A stretch of DNA of 64,000 nucleotides from Psychroserpens jangbogonensis. GTDB taxonomy: Bacteria > Bacteroidota > Bacteroidia > Flavobacteriales > Flavobacteriaceae. A program made the position numbers and the translations under genes. Position 1 is the stretch's first letter; each line of letters starts with the position of its first letter. Of this stretch, positions 1 through 9,264 are shown in pieces. The stretch is taken from assembly GCF_000797465.1 (NCBI RefSeq), contig NZ_JSWG01000001.1:248001-312000 (forward strand). The letters run 5' to 3'. The notes beneath the pieces are model-generated. The model was not told the origin of the DNA and ran no database searches. It saw nothing but the letters and a program-made list of their open reading frames with translations.

Positions 1-1
1 A

Positions 2-355
2 ATTAATAAAGATAAAGCCATACAATATACTAGTGTAGGCATACACAAAGATGATTTGAGTTTTGAAATTGAAACACATCCTATTAAGAAATTTGGTAGC
101 CAAGGTCAACAAAAATCATTCTTAATTGCATTAAAATTAGCACAATTTGATTTTGTAAAGCAACAAAGTGGTGTAACTCCTTTATTGCTTTTGGATGATA
201 TTTTTGATAAATTAGATGAACAACGTGTGGCGCAAATTATTGGTTTGGTTGACAATGAGGATTTCGGACAATTGTTTATTAGTGATACACATGCTGAGCG
301 TACGGAAAATGTAGTCAAGCAAATTCATCAATCGTATAAAATTTTCAAACTATAG
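2..355 (+). CDS. recF: RecF, DNA replication/repair protein (C-terminal part)
   Basis: The last 117 codons of RecF; the 5' part lies outside the window. RecF is an SMC-like ABC ATPase that loads RecA at single-strand gaps through RecFOR. Visible family marks are the [10 protein letters not shown] stretch, the ABC signature region [17 protein letters not shown], the Walker B/D-loop segment [13 protein letters not shown] and a final [10 protein letters not shown]-type segment. The reading frame is open from base 2, so the true start is upstream. The stop lies 2 nt before the following lipoprotein gene, which suggests a shared transcript. Identification is by conserved motifs and is secure. Confidence 0.95.
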
Positions 356-357
356 GT

Positions 358-780
358 ATGAATCTAAAAAAAGTATATTTAGTCGTATTTGCTTTTGTTG
401 TACTAAGTTGTTCTAAAGATCCAAATACATTTATTCCACACCTTAATGGGTATTGGGAGATTGAAGAAGTCACGTTATCTAATGGCTCAAAGAAAACATT
501 CACTTATAATGACACTGTGGATTACATTGAAATCACAGATAGTTTAACGGGGTTCAGAACCAAATTAAAACCTAATTTATCTGGTACTTATGAAACTTCT
601 ACTGACAAAGAACGTATAGATGTCAAAATAGAAAATGACAGTTTACATCTTATGTATTCTACACCTTATGCAAATTGGAAAGAAACCGTTTTAAATGCCA
701 ATAAAAATCAATTACTAATCATAAATACCAATAAAGATATGTACCTTTATAGAAGGTATGAGCCTTTTAATTTAGAGTAA
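358..780 (+). CDS. Small predicted lipoprotein downstream of recF
   Basis: A 140-residue protein with a short lipoprotein signal: positive start (MNLKK), hydrophobic core and lipobox VLSC with the lipidated cysteine at residue 18. The mature part (NGYWEIEEV near residues 30-38, several beta-strand-like segments) resembles small lipocalin-like lipoproteins common in flavobacteria, but I do not recognise a defined function. It starts 2 nt after the recF stop and lies 18 nt before the DUF721 gene, so it is probably co-transcribed with both. Localisation to the inner or outer membrane cannot be decided from the sequence. Confidence 0.8.
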   Translation: MNLKKVYLVVFAFVVLSCSKDPNTFIPHLNGYWEIEEVTLSNGSKKTFTYNDTVDYIEITDSLTGFRTKLKPNLSGTYETSTDKERIDVKIENDSLHLMYSTPYANWKETVLNANKNQLLIINTNKDMYLYRRYEPFNLE

Positions 781-798
781 GGTTTAATAGAAATTGAT

Positions 799-1095
799 AT
801 GGCAAGACGTAATAATGAGAATCTACCTATTAGTGACATTTTAAAAGAATTTGTTGATGCTAATAATCTCCAAACTGGCTTAGATAAAGTTAATGTTAGA
901 GACGCATGGACAAAAATGATGGGTAATGGTGTAAACAACTACACAACCAATATAGTATTGGAACGAGATACATTATATGTACAATTAAGTTCTAGTGTGT
1001 TACGAGAAGAGCTAAGTTATGGTAAGGAAAAAATCATTAAAATGCTTAACGAATCTTTAGGAAAAGATGCTATCTACAAATTAGTTTTACGATAG
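799..1095 (+). CDS. DUF721 / DciA-like protein
   Basis: A 98-residue protein of the DUF721 family, related to DciA, the replicative-helicase loader or regulator of bacteria lacking DnaC/DnaI. Visible marks are ISDILKEFVDANNLQTGLD near the start, the conserved tryptophan in VRDAWTKMMG, and the central strand pattern followed by LSSSVLREELSYGKEKIIKMLNE. Position after recF and a small lipoprotein supports a replication-associated role, but direct helicase loading by this short form is inference. The gene is followed by a strong hairpin terminator. Confidence 0.85.
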   Translation: MARRNNENLPISDILKEFVDANNLQTGLDKVNVRDAWTKMMGNGVNNYTTNIVLERDTLYVQLSSSVLREELSYGKEKIIKMLNESLGKDAIYKLVLR

Positions 1096-1116
1096 ACTTC
1101 ATTAAATTTATGACAT

Positions 1117-1145
1117 AAAAAAAGCACCTTAAAAGGTGCTTTTTT
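1117..1145. terminator. Bidirectional intrinsic terminator
   Basis: A-run, stem AGCACC (1123-1128), loop TTAAAA, stem GGTGCT (1135-1140), T-run. The A and T runs let it work on both strands. It sits between the convergent DUF721 gene and the peptidyl-prolyl isomerase gene. Confidence 0.9.
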
Positions 1146-1162
1146 ATATTTAAAACTGAATG

Positions 1163-2095
1163 TTATTTTACATCCATTAATTCTACGTCAAATACTAGAG
1201 TTGCATCTGGTGGAATAACTCCTCCTGCTCCTGCAGCACCATAACCTAAATCACTAGGAATTACTAAACGTGCTTTATCACCAACATTTAATAAGCAAAT
1301 TCCTTCGTCCCAACCAGCAATAACCTGACCAACACCAACTTGAAAATCTAATGGTGCGTTTCTTTTGTAAGACGAATCAAACACAGTTCCGTCAGCTAAT
1401 TGACCTTTATAATGTACAGAAACTGTTTTACCAGATTCGGCAGCTTTACCATCACCTTTTTGAATGATTTGGTAACGTAATCCACTTTTAGTTTCTTCAA
1501 AACCAGCAGCTAATTTATCTAATTCAGCACTAGCAGCTTCTCGTTCAGCAGCTACTTGCTTTTCTCTTGAGCCTTCAAAGGTTCTAAATGCTTCAACAGC
1601 TTTAAAGCTTTCTGCAGCGGCACCAACTCTTATAATCTCTAACGTTTCGATAGCATCATCTTGTGAAATTGCATCTACAACATCTTGTCCTTCTTGAACT
1701 TTCCCAAAAACTGTATGATTATTATCTAACCATGGAGTTTCGATGTGAGTTATGAAAAACTGACTTCCGTTTGTTCCTGGTCCAGCATTTGCCATAGACA
1801 ATACGCCTGGTGCATCATGCTTTAAATCTGGATGAAACTCATCGTCAAACTTATAACCTGGATTTCCAGTACCTGCTCCTTGAGGACAACCACCTTGAAT
1901 CATAAAATCTGGTATTACTCTATGGAATTTCAATCCGTCATAATAAGGATTTCCTTGAGGCTTAGCAGAATTTTCTAAATTACCTTCAGCCAAAGCAACG
2001 AAATTACCTACTGTTCCTGGTGCTTTTTCAAATTCTAAAGCGACCAAAATCTCACCTTTTGTTGTATTAAATTTTGCGTATAAACCGTCTTGCAT
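1163..2095 (-). CDS. Dual-domain peptidyl-prolyl isomerase (cyclophilin-FKBP fusion)
   Basis: A 310-residue cytosolic protein (no signal peptide) that joins two unrelated prolyl-isomerase folds. Residues about 5-165 are a cyclophilin: [25 protein letters not shown] and [12 protein letters not shown] carry the catalytic Arg, Phe and Gln positions and the conserved Trp. A short charged helical linker rich in Ala/Glu (about 165-200) leads to an FKBP domain (about 200-310) with [25 protein letters not shown] and a YG..G..IPP segment. Such dual immunophilins are known in flavobacteria. It is monocistronic, with a TATCTTTG box upstream and the bidirectional terminator downstream. Confidence 0.93.
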
Positions 2096-2118
2096 CTTGT
2101 TTTATTTTAATTGAGGTG

Positions 2119-2126
2119 CAAAGATA
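2119..2126 (-). promoter_or_regulatory. Candidate -7 box for the dual isomerase gene
   Basis: TATCTTTG on the minus strand, an exact match to the Bacteroidota -7 consensus TAnnTTTG, 24 nt upstream of the isomerase start codon. No clear -33 TTG is visible at the expected spacing. Confidence 0.5.
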
Positions 2127-2250
2127 AGAAACTAAGTTAGAAGTGCGAAGCTAGAATTACAATTTGAAATGTAATAGTTTGACTGTGTTGATTATGACTG
2201 ATTTTGGTTTTGAATTTAATTCATTTAGCTTTGTCCAAAATAATTACAGA

Positions 2251-2709
2251 ATGAATTTTATTACCAAATTAAAGGCAGCCTTTGGAAATCCGAAAGCAAT
2301 GGAAAAACTTCATGTTGATGATCATACTGAAGCTATTATTACAGAAATAGACAATGATCCTTTAGGTATTTCTGATTCTAATGTTCTTTATGCTGGACTT
2401 AACGAACTAGGCGGTTATTATTTTTTTCAAACAGTTATTGTTGGATCGTTTCATATAAAAACAGTAAAAGGCGCGCAACTTAAAGTAGTTGGTAATGATT
2501 TTGATTTCTTATTAGACTCAGATATGGTTGAATTAGAATCTGACCATTCTAATGTTTCAAATAGAAGTATTTCTAAAATAGATTTTCAAATTGAAGAAGC
2601 AGATGCTGCAAAAATAGATCGTTCAACTTTAAAGCAGTTTGTATTGACTTGTAAAAACGAAAAAATAACGTTTTCAATTTATGAATTGAGTACTGAGGAA
2701 GAGGAATAA
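2251..2709 (+). CDS. Protein of unknown function (152 aa)
   Basis: I do not recognise this family. The frame is open upstream to 2164, but the ATG at 2251 (MNFITKLKAAFG) is chosen because it opens with a typical amphipathic helix and the upstream codons look like translated intergenic sequence. The protein is soluble, has no signal peptide or membrane segment, mixes strands and helices (GGYYFFQTVIVGSFHIKT near residues 50-67) and ends in an acidic tail (STEEEE). It converges with the MarR gene, with only 2 nt between the two stops. Expression is likely solitary. Confidence 0.7.
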   Translation: MNFITKLKAAFGNPKAMEKLHVDDHTEAIITEIDNDPLGISDSNVLYAGLNELGGYYFFQTVIVGSFHIKTVKGAQLKVVGNDFDFLLDSDMVELESDHSNVSNRSISKIDFQIEEADAAKIDRSTLKQFVLTCKNEKITFSIYELSTEEEE

Positions 2710-2711
2710 AC

Positions 2712-3317
2712 TCAACTCTTTTCTATATACTCTGGACAATCTAACCTGATATCTTTATTCATTAATTCTTTTTCCAGTAGTCCACAAAAATCCGAATTAT
2801 CATGCTTTTGGTAGTACTTACAACCAAAGCATGTTCGCTGTACAGTTAGAGTACCATTTTGATTTAGTTTATAAATCAATTCACTTAGCGTTTTGAAAAT
2901 ATCTTCAAGTTCTGTTTGTTTAAATTTATCGACTTGATGCTTTAAAGGATTTGCAAAATCATAAGTTTCTGAAACTATTTGCTTTCCTAATTGAGATAAA
3001 TGAATACTATAACTTCTACTATCACTCGAAGAGTAATCTTTGAGAATTAATTGTTTCTTATCAAGAATTTTTACGGCATCACTAATTGTGGGCTTTGTCA
3101 CATTAAATTCTTTAGCCAAATGACTCACATTACATAACTCCTCATTATGATAGGTTACAAAAATTAAGATCTGTATTTGGATCGGACTTAAACCAACTTG
3201 TTTTGCCTTTTCCCAAAGTAAAACTTTAAACACTTCAGAAACACGCTCAAGACCTGAAACAATTTTACTAGAAAGATCTTCCTCCTGTTGATTGGGATTA
3301 AAAACACTATTATCCAT
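2712..3317 (-). CDS. MarR-type regulator with C-terminal four-cysteine motif
   Basis: A 201-residue winged-helix regulator. Residues about 15-150 have MarR architecture: long helix 1, GLSPIQIQILIFV, recognition helix region VSHLAKEFNVTKPTISDAVKIL, and a wing (DYSSSDSRSYSIHLS). Unusually, the C-terminus carries C163-x2-C166-x11-C178-x15-C194-P-E-Y, a spacing suited to a Zn or Fe-S site, so it may sense redox state or metal. A 13-bp palindrome overlaps its own -7 box, and two further copies stand before the two neighbouring transcription units, implying autoregulation and control of the locus. DNA binding by this protein is inference from position and family; the ligand is unknown. Confidence 0.85.
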   Translation of the reverse strand: MDNSVFNPNQQEEDLSSKIVSGLERVSEVFKVLLWEKAKQVGLSPIQIQILIFVTYHNEELCNVSHLAKEFNVTKPTISDAVKILDKKQLILKDYSSSDSRSYSIHLSQLGKQIVSETYDFANPLKHQVDKFKQTELEDIFKTLSELIYKLNQNGTLTVQRTCFGCKYYQKHDNSDFCGLLEKELMNKDIRLDCPEYIEKS

Positions 3318-3322
3318 AATAT

Positions 3323-3352
3323 AAAAAGCCTGCCGAATTTAGTTCGACAGGC
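3323..3352 (-). terminator. Intrinsic terminator of the exported-protein/DUF2024 unit
   Basis: On the minus strand a 10-bp stem (GCCTGTCGAA / TTCGGCAGGC, one G-T wobble) with loop CTAAA is followed by TTTTT. It lies between the DUF2024 stop and the marR start, and its 5' arm touches the marR -7 box, so transcripts begun at the marR promoter would lack that arm. Confidence 0.8.
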
Positions 3353-3384
3353 AAAGTTAGTCATCCTAATTAAATTAATTACAA
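3352..3384 (-). promoter_or_regulatory. Promoter of the MarR-type regulator gene
   Basis: Minus-strand TAACTTTG (3359-3352) matches the TAnnTTTG -7 consensus. A TTG stands at 3384-3382, giving a 22-nt spacer, slightly long. The palindrome at 3357-3369 covers the upstream edge of the -7 box and part of the spacer, which is a repression geometry. Confidence 0.6.
3357..3369. promoter_or_regulatory. Operator copy 1 (marR promoter)
   Basis: TTAGTCATCCTAA. With the two preceding bases it matches AGTTAGnnnTCCTAA, the sequence shared by all three palindromes of this locus. It is the least symmetric copy. Confidence 0.6.
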
Positions 3385-3638
3385 TTTTCCATTTCAATTA
3401 TAGAATATCCTTTTTTTGAAATATCATCAATCACAGATTTTGGAGCGGTTTCTATATGACAAAAATTGCATAGTTCTGTAGTGAGTTTTAAAGTTTCAAA
3501 GTTCTTATTTGATAAATAAGAGTTTCCGTAACCCAAAATCTGTTCTTCATTGTTAAAATCACTAGGAACTAGCACATCAAAATGCATTGTTTTCCCATCT
3601 TTTCTTTGGACATAAGTGTCCCAAACTGCAACTTCCAT
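3375..3638 (-). CDS. DUF2024 family protein
   Basis: An 87-residue protein that matches DUF2024 from memory: start MEVAVWDTYVQRKDGK, then MHFDVLVPSDF, a GYGNSYL helix and the closing IIEMENC. Cysteines form CNFCH (C57, C60, H61) plus C86, a possible metal or redox site. No biochemical role is established to my knowledge. It begins 4 nt after the stop of the exported-protein gene, so the two are translated from one message, which then ends at a hairpin terminator before marR. Membership of the three-operator locus suggests a stress-linked role (inference). Confidence 0.8.
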   Translation of the reverse strand: MEVAVWDTYVQRKDGKTMHFDVLVPSDFNNEEQILGYGNSYLSNKNFETLKLTTELCNFCHIETAPKSVIDDISKKGYSIIEMENCN

Positions 3639-3642
3639 AAAC

Positions 3643-4368
3643 TTATTGTTTTACTGAATATGGAATCGATAAATCTCCACTAGCTACACTAAACACTTCA
3701 TAAACACCAAGCATTGGCAGTTCAATATTACTAGTATTAACTTTCAAAAATGCTGTAACACCATCATACTTAAAATCGGTTCTATTATTGATTCTATAAT
3801 CTGGCACTATAACTTTAATGGTATTCATGTTTGCAATCACAGGATATCCTGGTGAGTCCATATACATTGGCATTCCTGGATTAGTTGGTGGCAAAACAAT
3901 AGTATTATCTGCTTTTTTAAATTGCTTTACTGAAAGTCCGCCGGCAACTCTTTTATCTTCATGTAAAACAACCCAATGTGGATGCCATACAACACCATCA
4001 TTATTAAAAATACGATCGCTATTCTCATCCCACAATGGTGTATCGTCAAAATCTGGATGAGATGTTAAGGCTAATGTTACTATGCCTTCCGTTTGACTAA
4101 AACCTACATCAGTTGGCTTTAAAGTTGTTGGAAACACGTACCCTAATACTGGAGCTCCATCTAATTGACCTACTTTCATTGGAATCGTATGTGCTGCTTT
4201 ACCTTTTACAGAAATTTCCCAAATGGTAATACCCAAATCTTTTTGATGTGTAACATTTACTTCTATAATATTGAAGTCATCATTGTTGTATTCACTTACT
4301 TGAGCACTAGAATTGAATGTTATACTAGAAAATAAGACTATAGTAATTATTGATATTATTGATTTCAT
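3643..4368 (-). CDS. Exported protein of unknown function, operator-controlled
   Basis: A 241-residue protein with a classical signal peptide (MKSIISIITIVLFSSITFNSSAQ, cleavage expected after AQ near residue 23), hence periplasmic or exported. I do not recognise the family. The mature part is mostly beta-like, with several histidine/tryptophan-rich stretches (TSHPDFDDTPLW, VVWHPHWVVLHEDKR) that could bind a metal, and a proline/methionine-rich PPTNPGMPMYMDSPGYP segment. No cysteine remains in the mature protein. It is the first gene of a two-gene unit with DUF2024. The start codon lies 32 nt from the perfect palindrome at 4401-4413. Confidence 0.75.
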   Translation of the reverse strand: MKSIISIITIVLFSSITFNSSAQVSEYNNDDFNIIEVNVTHQKDLGITIWEISVKGKAAHTIPMKVGQLDGAPVLGYVFPTTLKPTDVGFSQTEGIVTLALTSHPDFDDTPLWDENSDRIFNNDGVVWHPHWVVLHEDKRVAGGLSVKQFKKADNTIVLPPTNPGMPMYMDSPGYPVIANMNTIKVIVPDYRINNRTDFKYDGVTAFLKVNTSNIELPMLGVYEVFSVASGDLSIPYSVKQ

Positions 4369-4400
4369 AATTGTTTGATTTATAATAGTTGATATTTTAT

Positions 4401-4413
4401 TTAGGAATCCTAA
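4401..4413. promoter_or_regulatory. Operator copy 2 (upstream of the exported-protein gene)
   Basis: TTAGGAATCCTAA is a perfect palindrome with 6-bp arms around one central base, in the gap between the thioredoxin-fold gene and the exported-protein gene. A weak -7-like TAATTTTA lies just upstream (4431-4424, minus strand), which would place the palindrome over the transcription start region. That promoter assignment is tentative. Confidence 0.65.
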
Positions 4414-4428
4414 CTATGTGATTTAAAA

Positions 4429-4662
4429 TTACCCCTTGACATCTGCCATTGAAGCTCCAAAATTGATGTGCAATGTATTTCCATTAGGTGTAACCAAAGC
4501 AGGAACAGATTCTACTCCAGCATTTTCGGCTTCCTGAATTCTAGATCGATTTTCTCCAATATTAACGATTTCAACATTTTCAGAACCTATGAGGTTAACG
4601 ATGTCATGTTCTGCACTTACACAAACTGAACATCCTGCGTGATAAAAAATTGACTTACTCAT
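4429..4662 (-). CDS. Small thioredoxin-fold CxxC protein
   Basis: A 77-residue protein (start MSKSIFYHAG chosen; the frame extends 13 codons upstream but those overlap the likely 5' leader). The pattern is thioredoxin/glutaredoxin-like: strand, then catalytic C11-S-V-C14, a helix, a second strand (VEIVNIG) and the cis-proline loop GVESVPALVTPNG, ending HINFGASMADVKG. There is no signal peptide, so it acts in the cytosol. A TATATTTG -7 box with a palindrome immediately upstream indicates regulation by the adjacent MarR-type protein. It is probably a thiol-disulfide exchange partner; the substrate is unknown. Confidence 0.8.
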   Translation of the reverse strand: MSKSIFYHAGCSVCVSAEHDIVNLIGSENVEIVNIGENRSRIQEAENAGVESVPALVTPNGNTLHINFGASMADVKG

Positions 4663-4698
4663 TTTACTATATTTAAAAATTTTTGCATTATTGCGATA

Positions 4699-4706
4699 CA
4701 AATATA
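4699..4706 (-). promoter_or_regulatory. -7 box for the thioredoxin-fold gene
   Basis: TATATTTG on the minus strand, an exact TAnnTTTG match, 36 nt upstream of the chosen start. The palindrome at 4708-4720 occupies the spacer directly upstream of it, so a bound regulator would occlude the promoter. Confidence 0.6.
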
Positions 4707-4707
4707 G

Positions 4708-4720
4708 TTAGGATTCCTTA
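4708..4720. promoter_or_regulatory. Operator copy 3 (upstream of the thioredoxin-fold gene)
   Basis: TTAGGATTCCTTA, a palindrome with one mismatch. Extended by two bases it is AGTTAGGATTCCTTA, 14 of 15 identical to copy 2 read on the opposite strand. Confidence 0.65.
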
Positions 4721-4843
4721 CTTTAAGTATTATTTTTATATAAATCTCCGTTTTTTATTTTAAAATGTTGAATATGGGACCATTATAAGTCTTCAGGAAA
4801 AAGGCTTAATAAGTAGAAACATAAAGAGTGATAGATTAATAAA

Positions 4844-7045
4844 TCAATTAGCGACCTCGCTCATAAACTTAATACGATACAAACGAAGTTCTTCTTCTTC
4901 ATAATCGCCTTCAAATTCTTCAATGGCATCAGAAATTTTATCAGTTTCAGATTCCATAAAATACTCATGAATTTCTTCTTGCTGATCTTCATCTAAAATT
5001 TCATCTATCCAATAGTTTATATTGAGCTTGGTTCCAGAAAAAACAATGGCTTCCATTTCTTTTGTAAAATCAGCCATACTCATTCCTTTTGAAGATGCGA
5101 TATCATCTAAGCGCAACTTTCTATCCACATTTTGAATGATATATAACTTTATAGCAGAATTTGAACCTGTGCTTTTTACAACAAAGTCGTCAGGTCTCAT
5201 AATGTCATTCTCATCAACGTAGGTAGAAATTAACTCAATAAAATCTTTACCATATTTTTTAGCTTTACCGTCACCAACACCATGAACATGACTTAACTCT
5301 TCAATAGTAATCGGGTATTTTAAGGCCATATCTTCTAACGAAGGATCTTGAAAAATCACAAAAGGCGGAACACCTAAATCTTTGGCGTTAGCTTTTCTGA
5401 GGTCTTTTAGCATTCTCATTAATTTCTCATCGGCAACTCCTCCTCCTCCTTTTGCTGCAGTAATAATACCATCATCAGACGAATCGTCAAATACATGATC
5501 TTCAGTCATCATGAATGATTTTGGTGACTTTATAAAATCGTGACCAGCTTGTGGCATACGCAGTACACCATAAGTTTCAATATCTTTTTTTAAGAATCCA
5601 GCTACTAATACTTGACGAATTAGAGCCATCCAATAGCGTTTATCTCGCTGTTTCCCTATTCCAAAGAAAGGTTGAGCATCGGTTTTATGGGAAGAAATTA
5701 AAGCATTTGGTGCTCCTATTAAAACATTGACCAAATCCTTAGACTTATACTTCTCTTTAGTTTTTTCAACTGTTTCTAACAATGTTACGACCTCACCTTT
5801 AGCTTCGTGCTGTTTCTTAGGATTACGAACATTATCATCCATCTCTCCTCCATCACCAGTTTCATTATCAAACTCTTCTCCAAAATAATGCAATATAAAT
5901 TTTCGTCTAGACACTGAGCTTTCAGCAAAAGCAACAACTTCTTGAAGTAATGCTTGTCCGATTTCCTGTTCAGCAACAGGCTTTCCAGACATAAATTTCT
6001 CTAGTTTCTCTATATCCTTATATGCATAGTATGCTAAACAATGTCCTTCACCTCCATCACGTCCAGCTCTACCAGTTTCCTGATAATAACTTTCAATACT
6101 TTTAGGCATATCATGGTGAATTACGAAACGCACATCAGGTTTGTCAATCCCCATACCAAAAGCAATGGTTGCGACAACAACATCTGCATCTTCCATAAGA
6201 AACATATCTTGATGCCTCACTCTCGTTTTTGGATCTAAACCTGCATGATATGGCACTGCTTTTACGCCATTAACTTGAAGTACTTGTGCTAATTCTTCAA
6301 CACGTTTTCGACTTAAACAGTAAACAATTCCAGATTTCCCTTCGTTTTGTTTAACAAATCGAATGATATCTGCGTCTACATTCTTAGTTTTCGGACGTAT
6401 TTCATAATACAAATTAGGTCTATTAAAAGACGCTTTAAATGTAGTAGCTTGAGTTATATCTAAACTCTTTAGAATATCCTCTTGAACTTTTGGAGTAGCG
6501 GTTGCTGTTAATCCTATAATAGGAATATTGTCTCCAATACGTTTAATAATATGTCTGAGATTTCTGTATTCTGGCCTAAAGTCATGACCCCATTCACTAA
6601 TACAATGGGCTTCGTCAACTGCCATAAATGTTATCTTCACAGTTCTTAAAAACTCGACATGTTCCTCTTTGGTAAGTGATTCAGGTGCTACGTAAAGCAA
6701 TTTAGTGATACCATTAGTGATATCTTCTTTAACGCGTTTGACTTCTGTTTTATTTAGCGATGAGTTTAAAACATGGGCGACGCCTTCTTCATCAGAAACC
6801 CCTCTGATAGCGTCAACTTGGTTTTTCATTAAAGCAATTAGTGGAGATACAATTATTGCTGTACCTTCTTTTATTAACGCTGGAAGTTGGTAACACATTG
6901 ACTTTCCTCCTCCTGTTGGCATTATAACGAATACATCCTCACCAGCAACAACACTTTTAATGACACTCTCTTGAAGTCCCTTAAATTTTGTAAAACCAAA
7001 GTATTGTTTAAGTGCAGAATGTATATCAATTTCTTTTGTACTCAT
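4844..7045 (-). CDS. recQ: ATP-dependent DNA helicase RecQ
   Basis: A 733-residue superfamily 2, 3'-5' helicase for recombination and repair. Motif 0 (FGFTKFKGLQ), Walker A TGGGKS (44-49), DEAH (144-147), SATATATP-type motif III (GLTATATP), FNRPNLYY, and motif VI QETGRAGRDG are all present. An HRDC domain follows near residues 545-620 (PPFVIFQDPSLEDMA, HVHGVG). The usual RecQ zinc-binding tetracysteine after the helicase core is not visible: the SRRKFILHYFGEEFDNETG region has no cysteines. An acidic C-terminal tail extends past HRDC. It is transcribed from its own promoter toward the operator-controlled locus. Confidence 0.95.
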   Translation of the reverse strand: MSTKEIDIHSALKQYFGFTKFKGLQESVIKSVVAGEDVFVIMPTGGGKSMCYQLPALIKEGTAIIVSPLIALMKNQVDAIRGVSDEEGVAHVLNSSLNKTEVKRVKEDITNGITKLLYVAPESLTKEEHVEFLRTVKITFMAVDEAHCISEWGHDFRPEYRNLRHIIKRIGDNIPIIGLTATATPKVQEDILKSLDITQATTFKASFNRPNLYYEIRPKTKNVDADIIRFVKQNEGKSGIVYCLSRKRVEELAQVLQVNGVKAVPYHAGLDPKTRVRHQDMFLMEDADVVVATIAFGMGIDKPDVRFVIHHDMPKSIESYYQETGRAGRDGGEGHCLAYYAYKDIEKLEKFMSGKPVAEQEIGQALLQEVVAFAESSVSRRKFILHYFGEEFDNETGDGGEMDDNVRNPKKQHEAKGEVVTLLETVEKTKEKYKSKDLVNVLIGAPNALISSHKTDAQPFFGIGKQRDKRYWMALIRQVLVAGFLKKDIETYGVLRMPQAGHDFIKSPKSFMMTEDHVFDDSSDDGIITAAKGGGGVADEKLMRMLKDLRKANAKDLGVPPFVIFQDPSLEDMALKYPITIEELSHVHGVGDGKAKKYGKDFIELISTYVDENDIMRPDDFVVKSTGSNSAIKLYIIQNVDRKLRLDDIASSKGMSMADFTKEMEAIVFSGTKLNINYWIDEILDEDQQEEIHEYFMESETDKISDAIEEFEGDYEEEELRLYRIKFMSEVAN

Positions 7046-7067
7046 TAATCCCTATTAGTATTTTTGA

Positions 7068-7075
7068 TACATTTG
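7068..7075 (+). promoter_or_regulatory. Candidate -7 box for kdsD
   Basis: TACATTTG on the plus strand, an exact TAnnTTTG match, 56 nt before the kdsD start. No -33 TTG at the usual distance was found, so this is tentative. Confidence 0.4.
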
Positions 7076-7083
7076 CATAAGAC

Positions 7084-7114
7084 TAAAGATAACAATTTCT
7101 TTAAACCCATCAAA
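7084..7114 (-). promoter_or_regulatory. recQ promoter
   Basis: On the minus strand TTTG (7114-7111), a 19-nt spacer and TATCTTTA (7091-7084), one mismatch from the Bacteroidota consensus with ideal spacing. Transcription would start about 30 nt before the recQ ATG. Confidence 0.6.
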
Positions 7115-7131
7115 CTCAAAAAAAAATAATT

Positions 7132-8097
7132 TTGAACAGTATACAATCTATCCTAGAAACCGCTAGAAAAACTATAGATTTAGAACGTGATGCCATAGCG
7201 AATCTAAGTCATTTACTGACTGACGACTTTGCTAATACGGTCTCATTAATATACAACTCTAAAGGTCGTGTCATTATTACCGGAATTGGTAAAAGTGCAA
7301 TTATCGCTAATAAAATCGTAGCGACTCTTAATTCTACTGGAACTCCAGCTGTATTTATGCATGCTGCAGATGCCATTCATGGCGATTTAGGTCTGATTTT
7401 AGAAGATGATGTTGTGATTTGTATTTCAAAAAGTGGAAATACACCTGAAATAAAAGTCTTAGTGCCTCTGATTAAAAATGCTAAAAATAAAATGGTAGCC
7501 ATTACAGGTAATGACAAATCATTTTTAGCAATTCAGTCAGATTATATTCTAAATACGTACGTAGCGCAAGAAGCTTGTCCGAATAATTTGGCACCAACAA
7601 CAAGTACAACTGCACAATTGGTCATGGGAGACGCATTAGCCGTTTGTCTATTAGAACTTCGTGGGTTTTCAAGTCAGGATTTTGCAAAGTATCATCCTGG
7701 TGGAGCATTAGGAAAACGCTTATATTTGCGTGTAAGTGATTTATCATCTGTTAATGAAAAACCTAAAGTAGAATTAAACACTTCAGCCAAAGACGTTATT
7801 GTTGAAATTTCGGAAAAAATGCTCGGTGTAACTGCAGTTGTTGACAATAATAAAATTGCAGGTATTATTACTGATGGAGATTTAAGACGTATGCTAACAA
7901 AAAGTGACGATTTTATTCACTTAAGCGCTAAAGATATTATGGGTAGCAACCCAAAACGAATAGATGAAGATGCAATGGCGATTGATGCGATGGAACTTAT
8001 GGAAGAACATGGGATTTCACAACTACTGGTTGAAAAAGATGGAGAATATGCTGGCGTAATTCATATTCATGACTTAATTAAAGAAGGCTTAATATAA
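7132..8097 (+). CDS. kdsD: D-arabinose-5-phosphate isomerase (KdsD/KpsF/GutQ family)
   Basis: A 321-residue enzyme that interconverts D-ribulose-5-phosphate and D-arabinose-5-phosphate, the first committed step to Kdo of the LPS core. Residues about 35-170 form the sugar-isomerase (SIS) domain: GRVIITGIGKSAIIANKI, HAADAIHGDLG, CISKSGNTPEIK and YHPGGALGKRL. Two CBS motifs follow (about 200-321; ITDGDLRRMLTK, MEEHGISQLLVEKDGEYAG). The start is TTG at 7132: no ATG is placed sensibly and the resulting N-terminus aligns with family expectation. The stop overlaps the tatC ATG by one base, so the two are translationally coupled. Confidence 0.93.
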   Translation: MNSIQSILETARKTIDLERDAIANLSHLLTDDFANTVSLIYNSKGRVIITGIGKSAIIANKIVATLNSTGTPAVFMHAADAIHGDLGLILEDDVVICISKSGNTPEIKVLVPLIKNAKNKMVAITGNDKSFLAIQSDYILNTYVAQEACPNNLAPTTSTTAQLVMGDALAVCLLELRGFSSQDFAKYHPGGALGKRLYLRVSDLSSVNEKPKVELNTSAKDVIVEISEKMLGVTAVVDNNKIAGIITDGDLRRMLTKSDDFIHLSAKDIMGSNPKRIDEDAMAIDAMELMEEHGISQLLVEKDGEYAGVIHIHDLIKEGLI

Positions 8098-8924
8098 TGG
8101 GGAAAAAAAACACCAATGAAATGTCTTTTTTGGATCACATTGAAGAGCTAAGATGGCATTTAATACGAATCACACTTTCTATTTTAATTTGTGCTACGGT
8201 TGCATTTATTTTTAGTGGTTTCGTTTTCGAACACATTATTTTTGCGCCTAAACGCATGGACTTCCCTACCTATAAATGGTTATGCCAAGTATCACAGTTT
8301 ATAGGAATAAATGACGCAACATTTTGTGCTACTGAGTTTCCTTTTAAGGTTCAGAGTAGAACTATGGCTGGTCAGTTTTCCGCAGATATTTGGACCTCTA
8401 TATTTGCCGGATTTATACTTGCATTTCCTTATGTCATTTATCAGTTATGGAGTTTTATTAGTCCAGGATTGCGCAGTACAGAGCGTAAATATTCGAAAGG
8501 ATTTATATTCATGACCACATTTTTATTCTTCTTAGGCGTCCTATTTGGTTATTATATAGTTACACCATTATCGATTAACTTTTTAGCAAATTACAGTGTA
8601 AGTACTGAAATTTCAAATGAGTTTGATATTAGTTCATATATTTCAATAATACGTTCGTCAAGTTTAGCATCAGGTCTTGTATTTCAATTACCAATCATTA
8701 TTTATTTTTTAACTAAAATTGGATTGGTCACACCAGAGATCATGAAAAAATACAGAAAATTTGCATTGGTAATCGTCTTAGTACTTTCAGCAATAATTAC
8801 ACCTCCAGATTTAGCGAGTCAGGTTATTGTTGCTATTCCAATTTTAATATTATATCAAGTGAGTATTTACATATCAAAAGTTGTAGTAAGAAACCTAAAT
8901 AAAATAAAAAAAGCCGATGTCTGA
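8097..8924 (+). CDS. tatC: Sec-independent translocase subunit TatC
   Basis: A 275-residue inner-membrane protein that binds twin-arginine signal peptides in the Tat pathway. The family N-terminus MSFLDHIEELRWHLIR begins at residue 9, preceded by a short lysine-rich extension. Six hydrophobic segments follow, with the conserved SADIWTSIFAGFILAFPYVIYQLWSFISPGL region and the late ITPPDLASQ loop. No tatA/tatB is in the window. The gene is coupled to kdsD upstream (one-base overlap) and overlaps the next gene by 8 bases. Confidence 0.95.
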   Translation: MGKKNTNEMSFLDHIEELRWHLIRITLSILICATVAFIFSGFVFEHIIFAPKRMDFPTYKWLCQVSQFIGINDATFCATEFPFKVQSRTMAGQFSADIWTSIFAGFILAFPYVIYQLWSFISPGLRSTERKYSKGFIFMTTFLFFLGVLFGYYIVTPLSINFLANYSVSTEISNEFDISSYISIIRSSSLASGLVFQLPIIIYFLTKIGLVTPEIMKKYRKFALVIVLVLSAIITPPDLASQVIVAIPILILYQVSIYISKVVVRNLNKIKKADV

Positions 8925-9264
8925 TTTAGTTTCTGAATTTAATGCCTATCGTTCTAAAATGAATGATGCCATTTTAGCAGATAATAATAAAATCATTAAA
9001 CGTATTTTTAATCTGGATACCAATGCGTTCGCAGAAGGTGCTTTGGATAAAAAAACGAAAGAATTATTAGGCTTAGTTGCGTCTACCGTTTTAAGATGTG
9101 ATGATTGTATTAAATATCATTTAGAAGCAAGTCACAAACAAGGTCTTAGTAAAGAAGAAGTTGTTGAAGCTTTAGGTATTGCAACTTTAGTTGGAGGCAC
9201 CATTATTATTCCGCATTTAAGACGTGCTTACGAGTATTGGGATGCATTAGAAACTGAGCGTTAA
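8917..9264 (+). CDS. Carboxymuconolactone decarboxylase / AhpD-like protein
   Basis: A 115-residue alpha-helical protein of the CMD/AhpD family. The redox-type motif C-D-D-C followed by IKYHLEASHKQGLSKEEVVEAL is the AhpD-like active site (CxxC with a histidine three residues later), typical of alkylhydroperoxidase-type thiol enzymes. The true decarboxylase activity is therefore unlikely. It overlaps tatC by 8 bases and precedes lptB, so it belongs to the kdsD-tatC transcript. The cellular substrate is unknown. Confidence 0.87.
   Translation: MSDLVSEFNAYRSKMNDAILADNNKIIKRIFNLDTNAFAEGALDKKTKELLGLVASTVLRCDDCIKYHLEASHKQGLSKEEVVEALGIATLVGGTIIIPHLRRAYEYWDALETER

What the first reader, a model, noticed from the sequence alone, without database searches (positions are those of the whole stretch)
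3355..4720. Three copies of one palindrome at the starts of a four-gene locus: a probable self-contained regulon
Seen: TTAGTCATCCTAA (3357-3369), TTAGGAATCCTAA (4401-4413) and TTAGGATTCCTTA (4708-4720), all fitting AGTTAGnnnTCCTWA when extended and oriented. They stand upstream of marR, of the exported-protein/DUF2024 pair and of the thioredoxin-fold gene. Two of them touch or directly abut TAnnTTTG boxes. Known: MarR proteins bind 13-20 bp palindromes in their own and neighbouring promoters. Inferred: the MarR-type protein represses all three units.
Basis: partly seen in the sequence, partly recalled or inferred. Interest (0 to 1): 0.72.

Follow-up and report, generated by a model that had tools for sequence, protein, structure and literature searches.

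The report
Travelling gene cassette with own repressor
A small group of bacterial stress-type genes travels together with its own repressor and that repressor's probable DNA landing sites, and the same repressor type and landing site recur next to the same thioredoxin-like gene in very distant bacteria, pointing to a widespread response system whose trigger is unknown.

Summary
The three palindromes fit one 17-bp operator, AGTTAGGANTCCTAACT. In the 3.63-Mb genome the only two places within one mismatch are here (about 0.06 expected); the marR copy has three mismatches and rests on conservation. All 12 genomes with a strong MarR match (own included, of 57) carry sites; the stretches around 5 weak matches do not. 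The 80 named loci examined all carry sites, and 79 keep the thioredoxin-like gene beside MarR. The cassette is gained or lost as a unit: within the genus it fills one chromosomal site in 8 of 22 genomes and the site is empty in 13. The MarR has four C-terminal cysteines, invariant in 16 of 16 homologs compared from three phyla. Nostoc and Novosphingobium carry the same operator core beside this gene pair.

New: at marR the -7 box, operator and a covarying terminator hairpin overlap. The predicted start lies inside the hairpin's 5' arm, so read-through should terminate while marR's own RNA escapes.

Best reading: an autoregulated, self-contained MarR regulon of an uncharacterised cross-phylum family. 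Binding, start site and inducer are untested. Neighbours in some records hint at agents that damage thiol or pyridoxal-phosphate enzymes, possibly cyanide; this is weak.

The parts
4706..4722 (-). Operator 1 (TRX promoter); read on the minus strand AGTAAGGAATCCTAACT
   Evidence: a site with up to four mismatches at this place in 79 of 80 loci L040-L119
4699..4706 (-). -7 promoter box TATATTTG of the thioredoxin-like gene; starts at the operator's last base
   Evidence: TATATTTG in 73 of 79 homologous promoters
4429..4662 (-). TRX: 77-aa thioredoxin-fold protein (FYHAGCxVC...HINFGAS)
   Evidence: Pfam only sub-threshold for this copy; relatives L150 and L152 pass Thioredoxin_3; alignment A2
4399..4415 (-). 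Operator 2, between TRX and the exported-protein gene; minus strand AGTTAGGATTCCTAAAT
3643..4368 (-). EXP: 241-aa protein with a signal-peptide-like start (by eye), no Pfam family
   Evidence: found in 58 of 80 loci
3375..3638 (-). DUF2024 protein
   Evidence: PF09630, E 2.3e-31; 68 of 80 loci
3355..3371 (-). Operator 3 (marR promoter); minus strand AATTAGGATGACTAACT
3352..3359 (-). -7 promoter box TAACTTTG of marR, overlapping operator 3; predicted +1 at 3347 (inferred)
   Evidence: box position -12 to -5 from PMC9723704
3328..3352 (-). Terminator hairpin GCCTGTCGAA-CTAAA-TTCGGCAGGC with T-rich tail, between operator 3 and the marR start codon; its first base is the last base of the -7 box
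   Evidence: pair counts; folding
2712..3317 (-). marR: 201-aa MarR-type regulator with four-cysteine C-terminal tail (C163, C166, C178, C194)
   Evidence: PF12802 and PF01047 over cut-off; cysteines invariant in A1, A3 and 16 of 16

Best explanation
A self-contained, autoregulated regulon. A MarR-type dimer with a four-cysteine tail binds the palindrome AGTTAGGANTCCTAACT at three places and blocks RNA polymerase, because two of the operators overlap the -7 boxes of the TRX and marR promoters. An unknown signal releases it, and TRX, EXP and DUF2024 are then made. The confidence given is for this core. Two added steps are less sure. First (about 0.6), a terminator hairpin stops that transcription in front of marR, while RNA started at marR's own promoter begins inside the hairpin's 5' arm, cannot form it, and continues into marR, which keeps repressor supply on its own feedback loop. 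Second (about 0.5), the signal acts on the cysteine tail by thiol, metal or Fe-S chemistry. The cassette is gained and lost as one unit. Shown by computation: sites, conservation, co-occurrence, hairpin covariation, filled and empty sites, invariant cysteines. Inferred: binding, repression, start site, termination and its escape, and the signal.
For: Sites at all 12 strong MarR matches and none in the stretches around 5 weak ones. In 34 TRX-bearing genomes all 20 near-perfect sites lie within 1 kb of TRX. 80 of 80 named loci have sites. In 79 TRX promoters the operator (mean 1.81 bits per base) and the 7 bases after it (1.94) exceed the flanks (0.80 upstream, 1.01 and 0.64 downstream), and the -7 box is TATATTTG in 73; the sequences are related, so this is not independent evidence. 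The flavobacterial sigma-A box TAnnTTTG sits at -12 to -5 (PMC9723704, passages), which places the marR start in the 5' arm. Hairpin: 88% of cells paired against 80% in shuffles, covariation score 0.320 against 0.192, 0 of 500 shuffles as high on either, and sliding the partners drops pairing to 29-49%. Read-through RNA folds at -8 kcal/mol or better in 75 of 78 loci, RNA from the predicted start in 0 of 78. Cassette present or absent at one site in the genus. Same operator core beside the MarR/TRX pair in Nostoc and Novosphingobium.
Against: No binding, expression or start-site data. The marR site has three mismatches, no better than 12 other genome places. Places with two mismatches occur at chance level, also in genomes without this MarR (28 of 57 genomes have a place with up to two). 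The window's TRX promoter has no obvious TTTG at -33 (by eye). Operator 2 has no TAnnTTTG box, so a separate promoter there is uncertain. One covariation measure is weak: pairs with a change on both sides 7 against 5.4, reached by 45 of 500 shuffles, and the tool warns that related rows inflate such tests. Truncating any hairpin weakens it, so the energy contrast follows from the fixed register and is not an independent test. 13 of 78 loci read TAACTTAG and 6 TAACTTTA instead of TAACTTTG. No clear operator was found in the stretches scanned in Hymenobacter and Spirosoma. G017 and G025, without a strong MarR match, carry one site each with one mismatch.
Confidence: 0.85

Rival explanations
1. 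Regulator and operators are as above, but the hairpin is only an ordinary intergenic terminator. marR is transcribed by partial read-through, or the hairpin acts on translation of marR because it abuts the start codon. This rivals only the escape step.
For: The hairpin looks like a normal intrinsic terminator. It also stands between TRX and marR in L048, where no DUF2024 gene was recognised.
Against: The stem begins at the last base of a TAnnTTTG-like box in most loci, and the bases after TAACT fit a -7 box rather than the operator's outer AT. A plain terminator would not need that fixed register.
Confidence: 0.3
2. The operators bind a different regulator encoded elsewhere, and the MarR is only a passenger in the cassette.
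For: No binding test exists; two genomes (G017, G025) have a one-mismatch site without a strong MarR match.
Against: Co-occurrence of this MarR and the sites at the same loci and across phyla. The cassette moves as a unit, so an outside regulator would have to be present in every host.
Confidence: 0.06
3. Chance palindromes in an A+T-rich genome.
For: The short core is common: 258 places with up to two mismatches in the genome, fewer than its reversed control.
Against: The near-perfect 17-mer is not, and sites are conserved at all 12 strong MarR matches and 80 of 80 named loci.
Confidence: 0.01
4. On the signal: the system answers cyanide or other agents that damage pyridoxal-phosphate, carbonyl or thiol enzymes.
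For: In 5 of 13 named plasmid records looked at (Cytobacillus, Enterobacter sp. 638, Lelliottia, Agrobacterium, Hymenobacter) TRX or DUF2024 lies near annotated pyridoxal-phosphate-linked genes such as YggS, pyridoxal kinase, GlyA, GcvP, HemL, cysteine desulfurase, PtsJ or other aminotransferase-type regulators, or a DapA-like gene. The cyanide-induced cio cluster of P. pseudoalcaligenes has MocR, DapA1, SerC, HisC and ArgD (PMC8567248, PMC10138600, passages). MpaR is said to respond to cyanide-modified pyridoxal phosphate (PMC11837568, passage).
Against: Contexts were picked by hand; 8 of the 13 records show no such cluster (Novosphingobium has metB). Enterobacter 638 and Lelliottia are near copies. 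In the window the neighbours look like recQ and a peptidyl-prolyl isomerase gene (by eye), and the neighbours of the 80 loci were clustered but not annotated. No cytochrome bd or nitrilase is among the annotated products. Cytobacillus, Agrobacterium, G050 and G280 show no such MarR beside TRX. Oxidant, sulfide or metal stress fits the thiol genes equally well.
Confidence: 0.25

Closest known systems
Autoregulated MarR-family repressors such as OhrR and MarR (recalled)
   Same: Winged-helix MarR domain, palindromic operator in its own and neighbouring promoters, thiol-related target genes
   Different: C-terminal tail with CxxC-C-C invariant in 16 of 16 homologs compared; no Pfam match covers it and the listed PDB alignments end at model residue 164 or before; a regulon confined to one cassette that is gained and lost as a unit
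Inter-operon terminator-promoter overlap (tufB-secE in Salmonella, described in PMC7055797, passage)
   Same: The terminator of one unit overlaps the promoter of the next
   Different: Here an operator is also part of the overlap, the unit is a repressor's own gene, and the start is predicted inside the hairpin arm
cio cyanide-resistance cluster of Pseudomonas pseudoalcaligenes and MocR/MpaR regulation (PMC8567248, PMC10138600, PMC11837568, passages)
   Same: MocR, DapA and pyridoxal-phosphate enzymes also occur near some relatives of TRX
   Different: Different regulator family; no cytochrome bd or nitrilase seen in the cassette; DUF2024 is not named in those passages
Arsenic-type thioredoxin-like proteins (MTH895/ArsE)
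   Same: Small thioredoxin fold with CxxC
   Different: Match far below the curated cut-off, 13.7 against 62 bits

Membership tests
MarR family regulator | MarR winged-helix domain over curated cut-off | tested here: met
   PF12802 33.5 bits against 27, PF01047 30.1 against 24.6
MarR family regulator | MarR fold | tested here: met
MarR family regulator | Palindromic operator at its own and target promoters | tested here: met
   binding itself not tested
MarR family regulator | DNA binding and ligand-dependent release | not testable with these tools
   needs purified protein
OhrR-type or other named MarR subfamily | NCBIfam equivalog cut-off | tested here: not met
   highest NCBIfam score 31.6 bits against a cut-off of 175; OhrR model 23.1 against 200
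Terminator-promoter overlap | Intrinsic terminator shape with T-rich tail | tested here: met
   a run of four or more T in 72 of 78 loci
Terminator-promoter overlap | Promoter box overlapping the terminator | tested here: met
   TAACTTTG box shares its last base with the stem in the window; 56 of 78 loci exact TAACTTTG
Terminator-promoter overlap | Mapped start site and measured termination | not testable with these tools
   needs RNA data
Thioredoxin family (TRX) | Pfam thioredoxin or glutaredoxin domain over cut-off | tested here: inconclusive
   window copy 17.1 bits against 24.8; relatives L150 and L152 pass Thioredoxin_3, 36.1 and 25.9 bits
Cyanide-resistance (cio) cluster | cytochrome bd (cioAB) in the cluster | tested here: not met
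   the four cassette proteins match no such family in Pfam; the other ORFs at 1-9264 were read by eye only

The most novel reading that the evidence does not exclude
This is one branch of an unnamed, cross-phylum stress-response system. A MarR repressor carries a four-cysteine sensor tail and controls a dedicated small thioredoxin-like protein (FYHAGCxVC...HINFGAS), often with DUF2024, and in Gammaproteobacteria with a Rho-binding antiterminator. In the Bacteroidota the repressor gene is shielded by a terminator that its own transcripts disarm by starting inside it. The signal would be an agent that damages thiol or pyridoxal-phosphate enzymes.
Probability: 0.35. Interest if true: 0.8.

Novelty: new variant of a known kind. 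Interest (0 to 1): 0.62.

Why it matters
It gives a complete, portable and testable regulatory unit for genes whose function is unknown: DUF2024 was found in one paper of the library searched (listing only). The same regulator type and operator core across phyla mean one binding experiment would annotate many genomes. The start-site-inside-terminator arrangement, if confirmed, is a simple way to keep a repressor out of its own operon's read-through. The four-cysteine tail offers a direct handle on the unknown signal.

Tried and rejected
Chance origin was rejected on the 17-mer and conservation. The short core as a genome-wide regulon was rejected: the 13 other core copies with 0 or 1 mismatch do not keep the outer AG/CT bases on both sides (loci L002, L004-L015).

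A known MarR subfamily: no NCBIfam equivalog reached its cut-off. A known fold for the exported protein: Foldseek gave no match at E 0.001 or better on a model of pLDDT 72, so this is uninformative. A fold for the cysteine tail: no PDB row shown went past model residue 164, but the tail was not predicted alone, so absence is not shown. Relatives of TRX in phage records: none in tblastn at E 1e-5. The Enterobacter DNA region in E. coli genomes: no blastn match at E 1e-5.

Literature: searches for DUF2024, for a four-cysteine MarR, for MarR with persulfide, thioredoxin and glutamine amidotransferase, for P. aeruginosa PA0939-PA0942 (locus tags recalled, not from a call), for terminator-promoter overlap and for cyanide clusters (open-licence library only) listed no paper that I recognised as being on this system. 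Papers on CioR and OsbR (passages) describe regulators with one and two cysteines, so they are not this type. PA0939 and PA0942 appeared as single entries in three papers (passages): PA0939 in a list of hypothetical proteins (PMC4412052), PA0942 changed 1.54-fold (PMC7253367), and PA0942 among oxidative response genes down-regulated by a plant extract (PMC6335721).

The loci around the single sites in G017 and G025 were fetched (L158, L159) but not read. In one search the script picked a neighbouring site for L066, whose true marR site has the hairpin; L098 and L102 have weak hairpins; L107 and L114 had no site in range and are left out of the 78. The cruder rule found a marR site in 69 of 80. 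The count of second operator copies had no control.

Full report
What is there. On the minus strand the window holds a recQ-like gene (4844-7045, named by eye), a 77-aa thioredoxin-fold gene (TRX, 4429-4662), a 241-aa protein with a signal-peptide-like start (EXP, 3643-4368), a DUF2024 gene (3375-3638) and marR (2712-3317). The three palindromes of the finding stand upstream of TRX, EXP and marR at the stated coordinates. The genus is probably Psychroserpens: same-genus relatives share contig lengths with records of that name, for example G004 with Psychroserpens luteolus.

Is it more than chance? The 13-bp core is common in this genome (258 places with up to two mismatches, reversed control 410). 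The extended 17-mer AGTTAGGANTCCTAACT is not, when nearly perfect. Its only one-mismatch places are the TRX and EXP operators, with none at two mismatches and 13 at three, one being the marR site; the reversed control has 21 places with up to three. Base composition predicts 0.06 places with up to one mismatch and 22.7 with up to three. The 13 other core copies with 0 or 1 mismatch do not keep the outer bases on both sides.

Conservation. Of 57 genomes searched (own included), 17 have a MarR match at E 0.001 or better: 12 strong and 5 weak. All 12 strong loci have sites and the stretches around the 5 weak ones have none with up to two mismatches. A scan of named genomes found 501 relatives, of which the tool kept the best 80; all 80 were examined. 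At least 7 of them are the same contigs as relatives, judged by length. TRX was recognised in 79, DUF2024 in 68 and EXP in 58. With up to three mismatches, 65 loci have three sites, 10 have two, 3 have four and 2 have one. A marR-proximal site was found in 78 of 80 by a looser rule (none in L107 and L114). In 34 of the 36 genomes where one search found TRX (own and G077 left out), all 20 places with up to one mismatch, in 14 genomes, lie within 1 kb of TRX; the other 20 genomes have none at that threshold, and the reversed control has 2 places. Among the 57 relatives, three places with up to one mismatch lie away from a MarR-bearing cassette: one each in G017 and G025, not read, and one in G035, where it belongs to a second TRX-EXP-DUF2024 locus. 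Places with two mismatches are at chance level.

A unit of gain and loss. The 80 loci have 61 families of upstream and 63 of downstream neighbours (80 and 79 neighbours, crude ORF picking). In the genus, the gene next to marR on its 3' side was found in 22 of 23 genomes. In 8 the cassette, full or in its TRX-MarR form, lies beside that gene; in 13 recQ lies there without the cassette; 1 is unresolved. G008 has the empty site and carries its cassette on another, 6.4-kb contig. The cassette is patchy: TRX in 36 of 395 genomes of the class, DUF2024 in 19 of 395 of the phylum and 0 of 14 controls.

Promoters. In 79 aligned TRX promoters the operator averages 1.81 bits per base, and the -7 box, whose first T is the operator's last base, is TATATTTG in 73; TTT occurs in a 7-base stretch around -33 in 70. 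The operator therefore fills the spacer of a flavobacterial sigma-A promoter. The window's own copy lacks an obvious -33 element. In F. psychrophilum the TAnnTTTG box lies at -12 to -5 (PMC9723704, passages).

The marR leader. In the window the marR operator runs into TAACTTTG, whose last base opens a 10-pair terminator hairpin (3352-3328) followed by a T-rich tail just before the marR start codon. The layout recurs in most of the 78 loci aligned with the window. Stems differ but pair: 88% of cells against 80% in shuffles, covariation score 0.320 against 0.192 (0 of 500 as high on either); pairs with a change on both sides are less striking, 7 against 5.4 (45 of 500); sliding the partners by 1-3 columns drops pairing to 29-49% (74 distinct rows). 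With +1 five bases after the box, read-through RNA folds at a mean of -15.0 kcal/mol (75 of 78 at -8 or better), and RNA from +1 at a mean of -2.7 (0 of 78). The inference is that read-through from the TRX unit terminates before marR while marR's own RNA escapes. Terminator-promoter overlap between operons is known from Salmonella tufB-secE (PMC7055797, passage).

Across phyla. TRX relatives (49-59% identity in the 60 rows listed) lie on 66 plasmid records, 56 of them Enterobacter. Beside MarR and TRX, Nostoc has AGTTAGGACTCCTAATT and GTTTAGGAGTCCTAACT; Novosphingobium has ATTAGGACTCCTACTAT and ATTAGGAGTCCTAT; Sphingopyxis and Sphingomonas have TAGGACTCCTAATC. The Gammaproteobacteria have a related palindrome of the same frame, for example AGTATCGAATCGATACT. 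In Enterobacter, Lelliottia and P. aeruginosa, MarR is divergent from TRX, followed by DUF2024 (not in E. hormaechei) and a Rho-binding antiterminator. Not every TRX has this MarR beside it: Cytobacillus, Thiothrix, Agrobacterium (a winged-helix gene 5.6 kb away was not examined), G050 and G280 do not. No clear operator was seen in Hymenobacter and Spirosoma.

What does it sense? Unknown. In 5 of 13 named plasmid records looked at, TRX or DUF2024 lies near pyridoxal-phosphate-linked or DapA-like genes; 8 do not show this. G050 and G280 have TRX near DapA-like and MocR-type genes. G035 has a site upstream of a GAPDH gene (two mismatches) and a phosphatidylserine decarboxylase in its second cassette. 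Sulfur and peroxidase genes occur in others. The cyanide-induced cio cluster shares MocR, DapA and aminotransferases (PMC8567248, PMC10138600, passages), and MpaR is said to respond to cyanide-modified pyridoxal phosphate (PMC11837568, passage). This makes cyanide or a similar agent a candidate, no more.

Verdict. It is an uncharacterised variant of a known kind, notable for its portability, its cysteine tail and the marR terminator-promoter overlap.

Noticed in passing
window 4685-4694 (minus strand) and loci L040-L119: A second conserved element, GCAATAATGC-like (GCAnnnn(n)GC), follows the TRX -7 box in 64 of 79 promoters; it lies near the predicted start and is unexplained.
   Followed up: partly
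L041, L045, L054 and others, between TRX and the next gene: A second, inverted operator-like copy within 30 bases in 30 of 76 loci (no control), giving a possible tandem operator or RNA hairpin; degenerate in the window.
   Followed up: partly
L156 (G035:C1:855500-868000): A genome with a second TRX-EXP-DUF2024 locus followed by a thioredoxin-like gene and a phosphatidylserine decarboxylase, and a site (8146, two mismatches) upstream of a GAPDH gene: the one case seen of an apparent wider regulon.
   Followed up: partly
L145 and L146: Distant loci carry a diverged but still symmetric palindrome AGTTCGGAAGCCGAACT upstream of EXP, suggesting operator and regulator change together.
   Followed up: no
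L025, L033 and L183 (G013): marR is split into two overlapping frames while TRX and two sites are intact; possible decay or assembly error.
   Followed up: no
window 3643-4368; L145, L180: EXP is highly conserved (HPHW, PGMPMYMDSPG) with no Pfam family and no useful fold match; some relatives have an N-terminal CDKC motif absent here.
   Followed up: partly
L179 6291-6578; L180 7176-7442: Small genes between DUF2024 and MarR in Hymenobacter and Spirosoma resemble the Rho-binding antiterminator by eye; Pfam support is weak (E 0.046, below cut-off) for the first and absent for the second.
   Followed up: partly
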